Assembly: GCA_958295945.1 (NCBI GenBank)
Contig: OY282386.1
Location: 3,218,204 to 3,282,203, forward strand
Direction: 5' to 3'
From: Candidatus Poribacteria bacterium
GTDB lineage: Bacteria > Poribacteria > WGA-4E > WGA-3G
DNA length: 64,000 bases
The translations under genes were made by a program, and so were the position numbers. Within the stretch, counting starts at the first letter, position 1. Each line of letters starts with the position of its first letter. Positions 54,843-60,494 of this stretch are shown here, piece by piece. The notes beneath the pieces were generated by a model. That model had not been told where the DNA came from, made no database searches, and saw only the letters and a program-made list of their open reading frames with translations.

Positions 54843-57272
54843 CTATTCGTTATTATCAAGTTCTTGGAGTGATTGTTTAATTTCTTCTATTAGTTCTTGT
54901 TTATCTTCTTGTTCTGCCAGTTCTAAGGCTTTTTGAAAGTCTTCTCTTGCTTCCTGAGTTCTTTCCAATAATTTATATACTTTGCCACGTGTTGCATAAG
55001 CATCTGCCAAAGTTTTGTCTAGACTTATTGCCTTATCACAGTCTATCAAAGCAGACTCCGTTTGATCTAACATCATTTTTGCATACCCGAGATTTGTGTA
55101 TGCCCACGCGTGGTCTGGATCTAAACGAATACATTCATTACAGTCGTCAATTGCAGATTCATATTGTCCGAGTTTGTTTTTCAGATGTCCCCGATTGTTA
55201 TGGGCATCTGCGTAGTCAGGTTTTAAGCGAATGGTTTCATCAAAATCAGGAATTGCTTCTTCGTCCTGTTTTAATCCATATTTTGCATAACCGCGCATGA
55301 AGTATGCTTGCTCATTGTCAGGATTGAGTTGTATACATTTGTTAAAATCAATAATCGCTTCTTCATATCGTTTTAATTTGAATTTCGCATCGCCTCGATC
55401 AAAATATGGTTGAGCGGTATTTGGTTCAAGTCGTATACCTTCATCAAAATCAATAATCGCTTCTTCATATCGTTCCAACTCAGTTTTAACTGAACCTCGT
55501 CTGAAGTAAACATAAGCCTCATTTGGATCAAGTTCAAGACTTTTATCAAAATCTGCGATTGCTTCATCATAGTACTCTAATTTATCATTTGCATAGCCTC
55601 GTAATAGGTAAGCCCCTTCATTGTCTGGTTTGAGTCGAATAGCTTCATTAAAATCAATAATCGCATCCTTATATTTATCAAGTTCATATTTTACATAACC
55701 GCGCATAAAGTGGGCATCTGCAAAATCAGGTTTTAGTTGGATAGACTCATCAAAATCAGTTATCGCATCTTCATAACGCCCTAATTCATCCTTCGCTGAA
55801 CCTCGTCTGAAATATGCAAACACATCATCTGGTTCAAGTTTAATACACGCATCAAAATCAGTTATCGCATCTTCATGACGCCCTAATTCATCTTTCGCAC
55901 TTCCGCGCCTGAAGTAGGCATAGGCATCATCTGGTTTTAGTTGGAGACCTTTATCAAAGTCAGTTATCGCTCCCTCATAGCGTCCTAATTCATCTTTCGC
56001 ACTTCCGCGCATGAAATATGTTTGGGCACGGTTCGGTTCAAGTTTAATACTCTCATCAAAATCAGTTATCGCATCCTCATAGCGTCCTAATTCATCTTTC
56101 GCACTTCCGCGCATGAAGTAGACATAAGCATCATCTGGTTTTAGTTTGAGACCTCTATCAAAGTCGGTTATCGCATCCTCATAGCGTTCTAAACCAAGCT
56201 TTGACCTGCCTCGTTTGAAATAGGCAAGGACATCATCTGGTTTTAGTTGGAGACCTCTATCAAAGTCGGTTATCGCATCCTCATAGCGTTCTAACTCACC
56301 CTTAATATGCCCCCGCAGGAAGTATGCTTCTGCAAAATCAGGTTTTAGTTGGATAGTCTCATCAAAATCAGTTATCGCATCCTCATAGCGTCCTAACTCA
56401 CCCTTAATATGCCCCCGCAGGAAGTATGCTTCTGCAAAATCAGGTTTTAGTTGGATAGTCTCATCAAAATCAGTTATCGCATCCTCATAGCGTCCTAAAC
56501 CAATTTTTGACGTGCCTCGTCTGAAGTAGGCAAGGATATCATCTGGTTTGAGTTCAATACCGCTATTGAAATCAGTTATCGCATCCTCATAATAACCTAG
56601 CATATTCTTGGTATGTCCGCGCATGAAAAAAGCGTGGGCATCATCCGGTTTAAGTCGTATACCTTCATCAAAATCAGTTATCGCATCCTCAAGTTGCTCT
56701 AACGCACCTTTAGCAATTGCTCGATAATTGTAGACCTCCGCATAATCTGGTTTTAGACGAAGTGCTTCGTCATAATCGGCGATTCCAGCTTCATGATTAT
56801 TGAGACCATCCTTTGCCCTTCCCCGATTGTAGTATGCTTCAACATACTCAGGATTCAGACGTATTGCTTCATCATAGTCAGAGATAGCAGACTCATATTG
56901 ATCTAAAATGGATTTCGTAGCACCCCGATTATTATAAAAAACAGCACTATTGGGTTTCAGGTTAATCGCATTGTCGTAAGCGAGAATGGCATCCTCTGGA
57001 TTGTGATTCAAGAGGAGAGTACCGACAGAAAACCAGGCATGGGCAGTGAGGTCGTTATCTATTCCTTTTGCAATATTTGCAATGGAACGCCACTTTTCTG
57101 TCGCTTCCGGGATTTTACCATCCTGTTCAAGCAAGTAAGCCTCTATTATAGCGTTGTCTATGAGCGATAACTCGGCGTTTCGCAGCTCCTCTTGCAAGGC
57201 TTCAGGTATTGTCCCAACCTTCTCAGGATTACTGATATTCTCAATGATTTCAAGTATAGTTTTTGTGTTCAC
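54843..57272 (-). CDS. TPR protein with about 21 tandem repeats
   Basis: An 809-residue cytoplasmic protein. From about residue 65 to the end I count about 21 tetratricopeptide repeats of 34 residues, with the pattern AYFxRGxAKxELxRYEDAITDFDExIxLxPD. Several units are nearly identical at the DNA level, and one pair (56291-56392 and 56393-56494) is a perfect 102-bp tandem duplication. It is a protein-interaction superhelix, with no catalytic domain and no signal peptide. The start is GTG. It is convergent with the PhyH operon. The copy number of repeats may vary between strains. Confidence 0.93.
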   Translation of the reverse strand: MNTKTILEIIENISNPEKVGTIPEALQEELRNAELSLIDNAIIEAYLLEQDGKIPEATEKWRSIANIAKGIDNDLTAHAWFSVGTLLLNHNPEDAILAYDNAINLKPNSAVFYNNRGATKSILDQYESAISDYDEAIRLNPEYVEAYYNRGRAKDGLNNHEAGIADYDEALRLKPDYAEVYNYRAIAKGALEQLEDAITDFDEGIRLKPDDAHAFFMRGHTKNMLGYYEDAITDFNSGIELKPDDILAYFRRGTSKIGLGRYEDAITDFDETIQLKPDFAEAYFLRGHIKGELGRYEDAITDFDETIQLKPDFAEAYFLRGHIKGELERYEDAITDFDRGLQLKPDDVLAYFKRGRSKLGLERYEDAITDFDRGLKLKPDDAYVYFMRGSAKDELGRYEDAITDFDESIKLEPNRAQTYFMRGSAKDELGRYEGAITDFDKGLQLKPDDAYAYFRRGSAKDELGRHEDAITDFDACIKLEPDDVFAYFRRGSAKDELGRYEDAITDFDESIQLKPDFADAHFMRGYVKYELDKYKDAIIDFNEAIRLKPDNEGAYLLRGYANDKLEYYDEAIADFDKSLELDPNEAYVYFRRGSVKTELERYEEAIIDFDEGIRLEPNTAQPYFDRGDAKFKLKRYEEAIIDFNKCIQLNPDNEQAYFMRGYAKYGLKQDEEAIPDFDETIRLKPDYADAHNNRGHLKNKLGQYESAIDDCNECIRLDPDHAWAYTNLGYAKMMLDQTESALIDCDKAISLDKTLADAYATRGKVYKLLERTQEAREDFQKALELAEQEDKQELIEEIKQSLQELDNNE
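56291..56494 (-). repeat. Perfect 102-bp tandem duplication within the TPR gene
   Basis: Bases 56291-56392 and 56393-56494 are identical; 102 bases equal one 34-codon TPR unit. Identity at silent positions shows that the duplication is recent or maintained by gene conversion. Confidence 0.92.
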
Positions 57273-57539: not shown

Positions 57540-57902
57540 CTATTCACCCCAGATAATCGTTTCTAATATCTGAGAAACTGCAATTACCGTATCATAAGGC
57601 ATTTTACACCGAAATACTGCTCTTCTGGCATGCCAATCGAGGCTTTTAACCTGGTCTGTTCGTATAACACCATTTACATCAAGTCCTGTAGGAATTTCAA
57701 TTTCAAAAGGTCCTCCTCTTTTTGTACTTGTGATCGGACATATAATCGCTAAATTTTTATCGCAATGAAAGTCTGATGAGGAAATAACAAGCCCAGGTCG
57801 TACATCCCAAATTTCTTTCCCCGCTTGGGGATCGAAGTCAATATCAACTACGTCACCTCGCAAAGGGATATAGTTTGGATCGTACACCGTTCCAGCTACC
57901 AT
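57540..57902 (-). CDS. mazF: MazF/PemK-type endoribonuclease toxin
   Basis: A 120-residue toxin of the MazF/PemK family that cuts mRNA at short sequences. Family blocks are LRGDVVDIDFDP, RPGLVISSSDF, LAIICPITSTKRGGPFEI and GVIRTDQVKSLDWHARR, with the catalytic Arg and Thr in these segments. Its ATG overlaps the 3' end of the upstream gene by seven bases (ATGGTAG), the usual coupling of toxin to antitoxin. The upstream gene, however, is not a normal MazE. Confidence 0.93.
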   Translation of the reverse strand: MVAGTVYDPNYIPLRGDVVDIDFDPQAGKEIWDVRPGLVISSSDFHCDKNLAIICPITSTKRGGPFEIEIPTGLDVNGVIRTDQVKSLDWHARRAVFRCKMPYDTVIAVSQILETIIWGE

Positions 57903-58702
57903 ATCTCATTGCCTACTGCTTTACCTGAATCTGCTTCCTCAGATGCATTGTCATTGACTCCTTCCGTTAAAAGGTCCGCTAGTTTTAAACGTGGGAGCGT
58001 AGCGGGCCGACCTGTCTTTTCCAAACGATGCGGCTCATATGCGACGGTATTTGCTGTGTTTCTGCGATTATCAATTTCCTGCTTTAAAAGGTCCGCTAGT
58101 TTTAAACGTGGGAGCGTAGCGGGCCGACCTGTCTTTTCCAAACGATGCGGCTTAAGGGCAATGGTGTTTTCTACGTTTCTACTAATTTCAGTTTCAGATG
58201 ACAAGAGACCAGATACCTCATTACTATTTTTAATAAGATTTCCAATGAAATGTATAAGTGTAAGAAAAAGATGATTTTCATTATCACCAACTGCATCTTT
58301 TAATTTGTTTTGTGCCGAAACCAGTATATGAAAATCGTCTGTTGTCCATGCAGAAGAGAGAAGAATTTTATCCTCAACGATTAAGGTTGTCAGTCTATCC
58401 ACAATTGCAACAATAGATTGTGGTAATGTTTCCACTTTACTTGTGGACACTCTATGTGAAGCCGTGAAATCAGATTTCACATGGATTTGCTTCTGAGGGA
58501 TACTCGTATATTCGCCAGCATTTTTAAAAGCAGATATGAACTCATCCAAGTGTGCAATTGGTTTATAATGCGGGACAGATTGTGTCTCAGGAGTGTTTAA
58601 ATCAAGCCATCGTGATCTACTTTCATCTTCAGACTTACGTGGAAATTTAGACACAAATGTCATTCTCGATTTGCGTCGCACCGTTTGGCTTTCGTGTACC
58701 AT
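57896..58702 (-). CDS. Unusual MazF partner with a duplicated C-terminal peptide; putative antitoxin
   Basis: A 268-residue hydrophilic protein with no recognised domain. Its C-terminal 90 residues contain two copies of PHRLEKTGRPATLPRLKLADLL, coded by two perfect 69-bp DNA repeats. By position (seven-base overlap with mazF) it should be the antitoxin, but MazE proteins are about 80 residues with an AbrB-type DNA-binding domain, which I do not see. The repeated LKLADLL resembles the short acidic or hydrophobic C-terminal peptide by which MazE blocks MazF. The N-terminal 130 residues are unassigned. The ATG follows GAGGAATATAAT. Antitoxin function is inference. Confidence 0.65.
   Translation of the reverse strand: MVHESQTVRRKSRMTFVSKFPRKSEDESRSRWLDLNTPETQSVPHYKPIAHLDEFISAFKNAGEYTSIPQKQIHVKSDFTASHRVSTSKVETLPQSIVAIVDRLTTLIVEDKILLSSAWTTDDFHILVSAQNKLKDAVGDNENHLFLTLIHFIGNLIKNSNEVSGLLSSETEISRNVENTIALKPHRLEKTGRPATLPRLKLADLLKQEIDNRRNTANTVAYEPHRLEKTGRPATLPRLKLADLLTEGVNDNASEEADSGKAVGNEIW
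57967..58152 (-). repeat. Two perfect 69-bp direct repeats in the mazF partner gene
   Basis: Bases 57967-58035 and 58084-58152 are identical over 69 positions; the period is 117 bases (39 codons). The spacers between copies differ in sequence. The repeats are more GC-rich than the surroundings. Confidence 0.95.
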
Positions 58703-59225
58703 ATTATATTCCTCAAATTCTCCTCAAGATAATATTGTTGAAATGATAGCAGTGCATAAAATCACTTCAACTAATTTACCCTATGAGATGGTTTGTCAAT
58801 TTCTCTTTCTCATTCAAACAGTATTTCAAAACCATACAAATAAATCATCTAAAACATCGGTTATTATAATACTTTATATCTAGGAAGGCAAGAAAATTAA
58901 TCTATAAGATTACTCTTTACATATCATTCACAATGCTGAGGGTGGGTATCGGATTGAAATGTTCTCAAATGTTTAATAAATGCTATATCATATGTTAGTT
59001 CTGGAATGTATTTATCTTCATAGGTCTAAATAGATTTACCAATGGGACCTGTGAACGAAGACAAGATATTATTAGGTTCCACTGAAGACATCAATTAAAT
59101 CATCTAACATCATAACAAGTTTTTCGTAGTCTTAAACAATATTATATCACAGAAAATTCTTGTTGACAAGAATTTTCTGTGATATGACAATAAAATCATT
59201 GTATTTTTCAGGTATAAGTTACTAT
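58703..59225. other. 523-bp gene-free stretch with a perfect palindrome
   Basis: No gene was seen. The stretch is AT-rich. At its end, 59144-59163 and 59166-59185 form a perfect 20-base inverted repeat around TG (arms ATATCACAGAAAATTCTTGT). The promoter of the mazF pair must lie near 58710-58780. Confidence 0.6.
59144..59185. repeat. Perfect 42-base palindrome (20-bp stem, 2-base loop)
   Basis: The arms ATATCACAGAAAATTCTTGT and ACAAGAATTTTCTGTGATAT are exact complements. It lies 40 bases past the dacB stop codon. It may be a bidirectional terminator, although no T-run follows, or a protein-binding site or target of a mobile element. Confidence 0.9.
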
Positions 59226-60494
59226 TTAACGTTTATTTGCAGCATGCCGACTAAACTGCGTCAATACATCCCCAATCTTATCTTGTATCCCACGTGCTAC
59301 TGCAGCAGAACCAACATAATGACTGATGAGGATTCCAAAAGCAAACACTTCACCATCGGCTGTCCGAGTGTAGCCAGCGAGTGCAGAAACACCACTTAAT
59401 GTTCCCGTTTTCGCGCGGAGCACTTTCTCTGCATACATGCCTTGCATCCTATTTTTCAATGTGCCATCAACACCAGCAATCGGTAGTGATGCCGTAAATT
59501 CTGGCATCAACTCAAAATTGTTATACATATATACAAGTAGATTAGTAAGCAATTCCACGTTGAGAAGGTTGTACCGAGAAAGTCCTGAGCCGTCAACAAA
59601 CCGATGTGCAGGTGGTTCGTCAAAAATTTCACCTAAAAAATCAGTAATAGAATCTCTTCCCTTTCGCCACGTCCCCGGTTCACCTTTAACCACCGCTCCG
59701 ATGCTTTTGAATAAGAACTCCGCAATCCAATTATCACTCGGTTTATTCATTAATCTTATGATTTCCGATAGAAAAGGTGATAAATGCGTGGTAACAATCT
59801 GTGCATCAGAAGGCACAGGACCAGCAATCACATCACCAGATACTGTCATCCCTTTTTGAATAAGAGTTGTTTTCAAAAGATTACCACATGCGATTGCTCT
59901 ACTGCCAGTTTTTACATCAGGTTCGAGATCGCGTATACTTAATGAACTCACATGAAAAGGTTTATCATCCCACATCCAACCCGGTCCTTCGCGGACAGTA
60001 TCAAAGTAAGTTTCATCAACGACGATGTTTCCCTCAATTGACTTTAAACCTGATTCTAATAAAGTATTACATAATGCTACAATATCAGCAGAATCAAGCA
60101 ACGGATCACCACTTCCTTTGAGATATAGGTTTCCAATAACATGTGGGTCAAAGGTTTTCACCACATGTAATGTTGTTTCAAATTGAAAGTTTGATCCCAA
60201 TTTTGCTAAAGCAGTTGCTGCTGTAAAGAGTTTCGTTGTGGAAGCGGGATGGTGTAGTTTATGTGCATTTTTGACATATATCACCTCACCCGTTTCTACG
60301 GAAACTACTTTGATACCTACGCTTGCTGTCCTAAACAAGGAATCCTGTAATACCTCATCAATATCTGAACGTAATTGTTCAAGTGGATTGACACCTTCTG
60401 GTGGTGAAAGTTTTTCCACAGGTTTAGTAGAAAATATCCCACAACCTGAAATTAGAATTACCCAACAGATAAGAATTACGCTATATATTCTCAT
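59226..60494 (-). CDS. dacB: D-alanyl-D-alanine carboxypeptidase/endopeptidase (PBP4 family)
   Basis: A 422-residue S13-family penicillin-binding protein that trims peptidoglycan peptides. It has SxxK as PASTTK near residue 87, SxN as KPSDNW and the KTG triad in RAKTGTLSG. The N-terminus carries a lipoprotein signal with lipobox LISGC, so it is likely anchored in a membrane. The domain II insert of the family is shortened (usual length about 450-480). The ATG is at 60494 with no clear ribosome binding site. The gene stands alone between a palindrome and a repeat-poor gap. Confidence 0.93.
   Translation of the reverse strand: MRIYSVILICWVILISGCGIFSTKPVEKLSPPEGVNPLEQLRSDIDEVLQDSLFRTASVGIKVVSVETGEVIYVKNAHKLHHPASTTKLFTAATALAKLGSNFQFETTLHVVKTFDPHVIGNLYLKGSGDPLLDSADIVALCNTLLESGLKSIEGNIVVDETYFDTVREGPGWMWDDKPFHVSSLSIRDLEPDVKTGSRAIACGNLLKTTLIQKGMTVSGDVIAGPVPSDAQIVTTHLSPFLSEIIRLMNKPSDNWIAEFLFKSIGAVVKGEPGTWRKGRDSITDFLGEIFDEPPAHRFVDGSGLSRYNLLNVELLTNLLVYMYNNFELMPEFTASLPIAGVDGTLKNRMQGMYAEKVLRAKTGTLSGVSALAGYTRTADGEVFAFGILISHYVGSAAVARGIQDKIGDVLTQFSRHAANKR

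What the first reader, a model, noticed from the sequence alone, without database searches (positions are those of the whole stretch)
57896..58702. MazF partner of unusual size with two identical candidate toxin-binding peptides
The gene upstream of mazF overlaps it like an antitoxin but encodes 268 residues without an AbrB domain. A perfect 69-bp direct repeat doubles the peptide ending LPRLKLADLL, similar in character to the MazE tail that blocks MazF. Two binding peptides could neutralise both sites of a MazF dimer. Identity at silent positions means that the duplication is recent.
Basis: inference. Interest (0 to 1): 0.6.

Follow-up and report, generated by a model that had tools for sequence, protein, structure and literature searches.

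The report
Antitoxin with doubled MazF-binding helix
In a family of uncultured bacteria the antidote to a common RNA-cutting toxin has lost its usual DNA-binding half and carries two copies of the short helix that plugs the toxin, probably one for each of the toxin dimer's two pockets.

Summary
In detail: a 268-residue ORF overlaps mazF by 7 bp, has no AbrB domain and carries an exact 69-bp repeat. The peptide is MazE-like: a profile of 18 AbrB-less tails has three MazE chains as its top PDB hits. What is doubled matches MazE sites III+II (residues 48-67), whose site-II helix inhibits MazF on its own (PMC12557383); the site-I tail occurs once. Doubling is not a one-off: of 68 AbrB-less partners in Poribacteria 48 have two copies, 20 one, none three; 0 of 14 AbrB-type partners are doubled. 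Copies lie 41 residues apart in 33 of 48, and both are under strong purifying selection. The duplication is old and homogenised, so 'recent' is wrong. Three genomes carry MazF as a tandem fusion whose second half lost the catalytic residues; their antitoxins keep both helices but lack the site-I tail. Best reading: a bivalent antitoxin that fills both site-II pockets of one MazF dimer. Binding and neutralisation are untested. A new variant of MazEF.

The parts
57896..58702 (-). AbrB-less MazE-like antitoxin gene, 268 aa
   Evidence: ORF; 69% identical orthologue over residues 1-267 in G007; dN/dS 0.45 over the whole gene against it
58079..58153 (-). copy 1 of the toxin-binding unit, residues 184-208 (KPHRLEKTGRPATLPRLKLADLLKQ): MazE site III + site II equivalent
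   Evidence: dN/dS 0.13; helix 202-214 predicted
57962..58036 (-). copy 2 of the toxin-binding unit, residues 223-247 (EPHRLEKTGRPATLPRLKLADLLTE)
   Evidence: dN/dS 0.14; helix 241-247 predicted
58084..58152 (.). 69-bp exact direct repeat, copy within unit 1
57967..58035 (.). 69-bp exact direct repeat, copy within unit 2
57899..57961 (-). single C-terminal tail, residues 248-268, MazE site-I equivalent (...SGKAVGNEIW)
   Evidence: alignment to MazE 1mvf_D/1ub4_C ends at the same Trp; single in all AbrB-less partners that have it
58211..58426 (-). three-helix module, residues 93-164, function unknown, recurs in other ORFs of these genomes
   Evidence: AlphaFold2 pLDDT about 85-88 over its best part; recurrence; no fold match
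57540..57902 (-). mazF toxin, 120 aa, with equivalents of E. coli MazF E24, R29 and T52 (here E30, R35, T58)
   Evidence: PF02452 E 8.6e-20; alignment to 3nfc/1ub4; family alignment
59226..60494 (-). D-alanyl-D-alanine carboxypeptidase-like gene (dacB by inspection) upstream; conserved neighbour
   Evidence: also beside the partner in L143, L144, L145, L147
54843..57272 (-). TPR-repeat gene downstream; conserved neighbour
   Evidence: also found in L143, L144, L145, L147, L148

Best explanation
The gene encodes the antitoxin of the adjacent MazF. It is a MazE whose AbrB DNA-binding/dimerisation domain is gone and whose MazF-binding segment is duplicated. Each copy has the MazE site III extended stretch followed by the site-II helix; only the last copy is followed by the acidic site-I tail. 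MazF is a symmetric dimer with two identical site-II pockets on its concave face. The two helices of one antitoxin chain, joined by a linker of fixed length, fill both pockets of one MazF dimer and so block both RNA sites at once. This replaces the second chain that AbrB dimerisation would bring. Shown here: homology of the tail to MazE, doubling as a family trait, selection on both copies, fixed spacing, homogenisation, co-occurring tandem MazF. Taken from print: site II alone inhibits, two site-II peptides bind per dimer. Inferred: that the pair binds, that it binds one dimer, and that it neutralises.
For: Tail homology: top PDB hits of the AbrB-less tail profile are MazE chains 1mvf_D 8.2e-6, 1ub4_C 8.9e-6, 7d2n_E 2.4e-5; NCBIfam MazE model matches 16 of 48 AbrB-less partners, best 2.5e-7. 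The doubled unit corresponds to MazE 48-67; MazE 54-67 alone inhibits, 48-53 and 68-82 alone do not, and two site-II peptides bind one dimer (PMC12557383, sections 10 and 11). 48 of 68 AbrB-less partners doubled, 20 single, 0 triple; spacing 41 residues in 33 of 48 and 39-43 in 44 of 48. The tail G-x-G-x-E never stands between the copies (0 of 35). dN/dS window vs G007: copy 1 0.13, copy 2 0.14, N-terminus 0.60, three-helix module 0.44; in a seven-member clade 0.065 and 0.047 against linker 0.35 and N-terminus 0.58. Tandem MazF in L016, L026, L179 (two PemK domains each), all with doubled antitoxins lacking the site-I tail.
Against: No binding, structure of a complex or toxicity was tested. 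20 of 68 AbrB-less partners get by with one copy, some close relatives of doubled ones (L183 against L184), so two copies are not essential to the type. In E. coli MazEF one tail serves one dimer; whether the site-I stretch leaves the second pocket free was not checked. MazF of the tandem type does not prove that both helices sit on one dimer.
Confidence: 0.58

Rival explanations
1. Bridging: the two copies bind two different MazF dimers, so that one chain rebuilds the MazF2-MazE2-MazF2 arrangement that an AbrB dimer would hold together.
For: MazE dimers bridge two MazF dimers in E. coli (PMC12557383 passages); all 14 AbrB-type partners have one copy and doubling is seen only without AbrB, as expected if doubling replaces dimerisation.
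Against: Only the last copy has the site-I tail, so the two binding units are unequal; the tandem-MazF systems, with a covalent dimer and no site-I tail, fit one-dimer binding more simply. On the MazF tree AbrB changes only twice at least, so the association has few independent events.
Confidence: 0.2
2. Redundancy: the upstream copy is a by-product of a recombination-prone repeat; only the last copy with its tail binds MazF, copy 1 is a spare.
For: Copy number flips between one and two in relatives (at least 6 changes on the MazF tree; L183/L184), and some repeats are exact, as in young duplications.
Against: Copy 1 is conserved as strongly as copy 2; L063 keeps 23 of 25 residues with 16 silent differences in those codons; spacing is kept.
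Confidence: 0.13
3. Two targets: copy 1 binds another partner, for example a paralogous MazF or a protease.
For: The genome has six PemK/MazF matches; in one clade the two copies differ consistently (LEDLLAQ against LKDLLDQ).
Against: In the window and several relatives the copies are kept identical to each other while changing between genomes, which points to one shared target.
Confidence: 0.07
4. The ORF is not an antitoxin of this MazF; a MazE elsewhere does the job.
For: Other MazE-like genes exist in the genome (L002, L003, L009). Some copies of the family stand without any MazF.
Against: Operon overlap kept in orthologues L014, L015, L146; tail homology to MazE.
Confidence: 0.04

Closest known systems
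E. coli MazE/MazF (PDB 1UB4; MazE 1MVF)
   Same: Gene order, overlap, MazF family with the E24/R29/T52 equivalents, C-terminal tail aligned over MazE 48-82 including the final Trp.
   Different: No AbrB domain; sites III+II present twice; extra 180 N-terminal residues with a three-helix module.
Deinococcus radiodurans MazEF (7D2N) and Klebsiella complex 7BYE
   Same: Closest solved MazFs by sequence, 1.4e-21 to 1.4e-19; MazE tail of 7D2N found by the profile.
   Different: AbrB-type MazE with one tail (the 7d2n_E chain is named AbrB/MazE/SpoVT, 80 aa).
SamF, a designed peptide inhibitor of E. coli MazF (9PME, PMC12557383)
   Same: Site-II helices alone inhibit; two bind one MazF dimer. The natural doubled antitoxin looks like two such peptides on one chain.
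   Different: SamF is a selected 12-mer and not linked; no evidence of common origin.
PaaA2-ParE2
   Same: An antitoxin without DNA-binding domain (PMC8630535, passages).
   Different: Other toxin family (ParE), separate regulator PaaR2; no doubled motif described in the passages read.

Membership tests
MazE (AbrB/MazE antitoxins) | N-terminal AbrB/MazE DNA-binding and dimerisation domain (PF04014) | tested here: not met
   0 of 48 AbrB-less partners match PF04014 at E<=0.1; a local profile of six AbrB-type N-termini scores 14 of 14 AbrB-type at E<=7.5e-7 and no AbrB-less one of 68 below 3.4
MazE (AbrB/MazE antitoxins) | C-terminal MazF-binding tail (sites III, II, I) | tested here: met
MazE (AbrB/MazE antitoxins) | Gene directly upstream of and overlapping mazF | tested here: met
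MazE (AbrB/MazE antitoxins) | Binds and neutralises MazF | not testable with these tools
   needs expression or binding assay
MazE (AbrB/MazE antitoxins) | Represses its own operon by binding DNA | not testable with these tools
   no DNA-binding domain recognised; the three-helix module had no fold match, which does not exclude DNA binding
MazF/PemK toxins (PF02452) | Pfam profile over its cut-off | tested here: met
   71.4 bits against 23.1
MazF/PemK toxins (PF02452) | Residues equivalent to E. coli E24, R29, T52 (E24 from PMC12557383; R29 and T52 recalled) | tested here: met
   E30, R35, T58 of the window MazF, aligned
MazF/PemK toxins (PF02452) | Sequence-specific endoribonuclease activity | not testable with these tools
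   needs assay

The most novel reading that the evidence does not exclude
A natural bivalent antitoxin: loss of the AbrB dimerisation domain is made good by doubling the site-II helix on one chain, so that one molecule shuts both pockets of one MazF dimer by avidity. In one branch the toxin followed by fusing into a covalent MazF-MazF pseudo-dimer with one dead half, and the site-I tail became dispensable. The same trick arose a second time in a PemK-like/TPR toxin system with a doubled DEPEYTLDMLI-type peptide.
Probability: 0.42. Interest if true: 0.76.

Novelty: new variant of a known kind. Interest (0 to 1): 0.62.

Why it matters
MazEF is one of the best studied toxin-antitoxin systems, and why one MazE chain serves a dimer with two equal pockets has been a structural curiosity. 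Here nature offers a series of variants: one helix or two, with or without AbrB, with homodimeric or covalently tandem MazF. It makes the question of what valency and the site-I tail contribute directly testable. It also gives a ready scaffold for how short antitoxin peptides can work without a folded domain.

Tried and rejected
Recent duplication: rejected, and the shared locus. Fold of the three-helix module: Foldseek gave 79 matches at E<=10 and none at E<=0.001, best E 3.0; no conclusion. Mobile spread: no match in PLSDB plasmids (tblastn of residues 187-268) or IMG/VR (180 pattern matches, none confirmed); only these two collections and one genome-contig scan (6 loci, all titled Candidatus Poribacteria) were searched outside the phylum genomes. 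The antisense ORF 57825-58274 (+) mirrors the repeat and was not taken as a gene. Resemblance of the three-helix module to the N-terminus of HigA-type antitoxins was only recalled and not tested. Literature on doubled MazE, tandem MazF or Poribacteria MazEF: searches listed no paper whose title or abstract start describes them; the library is open-access PMC only, so this is no proof of absence.

Rows dropped before counts: L053 (protein identical to L033, second contig of the same genome), L051 (truncated), L056 (42-residue remnant), L061 (stop inside), L028 (same place as L044), L181 and L191 (same contigs as L146 and L147). Copy counts came from a regular expression for the helix core checked by eye; one false third hit in L179 (SSRSLVAVV, residue 101, outside the tail) was discarded and its true spacing of 35 added by hand. 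L025 and L027 hold runs of N; they count as doubled but were left out of silent-site comparisons, and the spacing 31 of L027 is unreliable. Of the 14 AbrB-type partners only some reach PF04014 (9 of the 62 rows of A3; L090 does not); the rest are assigned by the local profile.

Full report
What is there. The 268-codon ORF at 57896-58702 (-) overlaps mazF (57540-57902, -) by 7 bp. The MazF has PF02452 at E 8.6e-20; the partner has no Pfam match at E<=1. The longest exact repeat in the gene is 69 bp, 57967-58035 and 58084-58152. AlphaFold2 on a 21-row alignment gives a mostly disordered chain (mean pLDDT 61.7, pTM 0.35) with three confident helices at 93-110, 121-138, 147-164 and one helix in each repeat copy, 202-214 and 241-247.

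The peptide is MazE's. A profile of 18 tails, all from partners without AbrB, was run against all PDB chains. Its three best hits are MazE chains: 1mvf_D (8.2e-6), 1ub4_C (8.9e-6) and 7d2n_E (2.4e-5). The aligned part of 1mvf_D is residues 48-82. In the numbering of PMC12557383 (passages, sections 10 and 11 read) that is site III (48-53), site II (54-67, helix H2) and site I (68-82). The repeat unit covers site III and site II. Site I stands once, at the end; in 35 doubled proteins none has it between the copies. The same paper reports that the 54-67 peptide inhibits MazF while 48-53 and 68-82 do not, and that two site-II peptides bind one MazF dimer in identical pockets.

Family census. A search of 59 relatives with the partner matched 29, all in one family of three genera. 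MazF itself was sought in the same 59 genomes (49 matched), and 80 further regions were fetched, of which 79 hold a MazF listed there from that family or its order (the listing was cut and not all matches were fetched). Partners with a MazE-like tail were collected and, after a phylum search. Of 68 without AbrB, 48 have two copies, 20 one and none three. All 14 AbrB-type partners have one. The set leans to doubled forms, because part of it was found with a doubled query. In the phylum search (84 genomes) the nine genomes outside the family that matched did so only with the last copy and tail (model positions 92-130 of 130). Copy spacing: 41 residues in 33 of 48, 40 in 5, 43 in 4, 39 in 2, 35 in 2, 76 and 31 once each (with L179 corrected to 35).

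The duplication is old. The G007 orthologue (69% identical) has the same two copies. Comparing the four copies over 120 nt, 13 sites are shared by position and 8 by genome; in the printed sequences the former lie mostly in the flanks, where both first copies are followed by KQEIDNRRN, and the latter in and just before the repeat. So the pair existed before the split and the repeat was homogenised in each line. The gene pair also sits in a shared locus: a dacB-like gene on one side and a TPR gene on the other in L143, L144, L145 and L147. Three of these four are doubled and L147 is single. Across 33 doubled proteins free of N, 25 of 66 units have their sister copy as nearest unit and 39 a unit at the same position elsewhere. 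Both histories, homogenised and long diverged, therefore occur.

Both copies matter. Between the window and G007 dN/dS is 0.13 for copy 1, 0.14 for copy 2, 0.28 for the linker, 0.43 for the tail, 0.60 for residues 1-90, 0.44 for the three-helix module, 0.98 for 166-184 and 0.20 for mazF; these are short stretches and the single values are rough. In the L029 clade (7 members) copy 1 core is 0.065, copy 2 core 0.047, linker 0.35, N-terminus 0.58. In L063 the copies share 23 of 25 residues with 16 silent differences among those codons.

The toxin side. In L016 and L026 and L179 MazF is 234 residues with two MazF domains; Pfam counts two PemK stretches in L016 and L026. The first halves keep the equivalents of E24, R29 and T52, the second halves of L016 and L026 have lost all three. 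AlphaFold2 folds both halves of L026 as MazF (mean pLDDT 79.6); the first half matches 7d2n_B (Z 18.7, rmsd 1.9, 108 residues) and the second 3nfc_A (Z 16.1, rmsd 1.2, 94 residues). The partners of all three are doubled and have no G-x-G-x-E tail. L022 carries a deleted remnant of such a fusion. On a tree of 52 MazF rows the first and second halves of L016 and L026 form two clades within the window's own subgroup; one against two copies needs at least 6 changes, AbrB against none 2.

How it most likely works. MazF offers two equal site-II pockets. An AbrB-type MazE brings its tails in pairs by dimerising. Without AbrB, a chain with two site-II helices 41 residues apart can fill both pockets of one dimer. 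The tandem toxin, a covalent dimer with one dead half and an antitoxin that kept both helices and dropped site I, is what this reading would expect. Steps shown: homology, doubling, spacing, selection, homogenisation, tandem MazF. Steps inferred: binding, one-dimer geometry, neutralisation. Bridging of two dimers remains the main rival.

What is known. I found no description of a doubled MazE tail or tandem MazF in nine searches of an open-access library (listings and starts of abstracts seen). PMC2701414 was read only in passages and PMC8630535 in passages. By membership it is not an AbrB/MazE protein, as the AbrB domain was tested and not met; its C-terminal part is MazE-homologous. I file it as a new variant of MazEF.

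Noticed in passing
L043 1581-2354, L044 2140-2919, L045 1801-2568, L179 2-289; single form L013 1808-2140: Second system: antitoxin-like ORFs, most with the same three-helix module, with a doubled peptide of type DEPEYTLDMLISVNPDY (DEPEYTPAQLDLINSQY in L045). In L043, L044 and L045 the next gene is a TPR protein; PemK is reached only weakly in L043 (19.5 bits, below cut-off) and over the cut-off in L013. Doubling may have arisen twice.
   Followed up: partly
L016 794-1498, L026 2004-2708, L179 downstream of 1532: Tandem MazF fusions with a second half that lost the catalytic residues (last point checked in L016 and L026 only).
   Followed up: yes
L017, L019, L024, L033, L034, L052, L058: Antitoxin genes of this family with no MazF detectable nearby: orphan antitoxins or toxin loss.
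   Followed up: partly
window 58211-58426; also L004, L005, L007, L040, L047: A three-helix module (pattern VGEDENHPLxPLMxFIxxLIExYE) recurs in unrelated ORFs of these genomes, among them TPR proteins; no Pfam family, no fold match.
   Followed up: partly
55973-56395: TPR gene 54843-57272 has exact repeats at offset 102 bp, the longest 105 bp, so its array expanded or was homogenised recently.
   Followed up: no
59144-59185: Perfect 20-bp inverted repeat with a 2-nt loop just behind the dacB-like gene, a likely terminator.
   Followed up: no
L183 1158-1544 and L184 1359-1622: Two genomes hold near-identical antitoxins, one with two copies and one with a single copy of the unit: a recent gain or loss.
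   Followed up: partly
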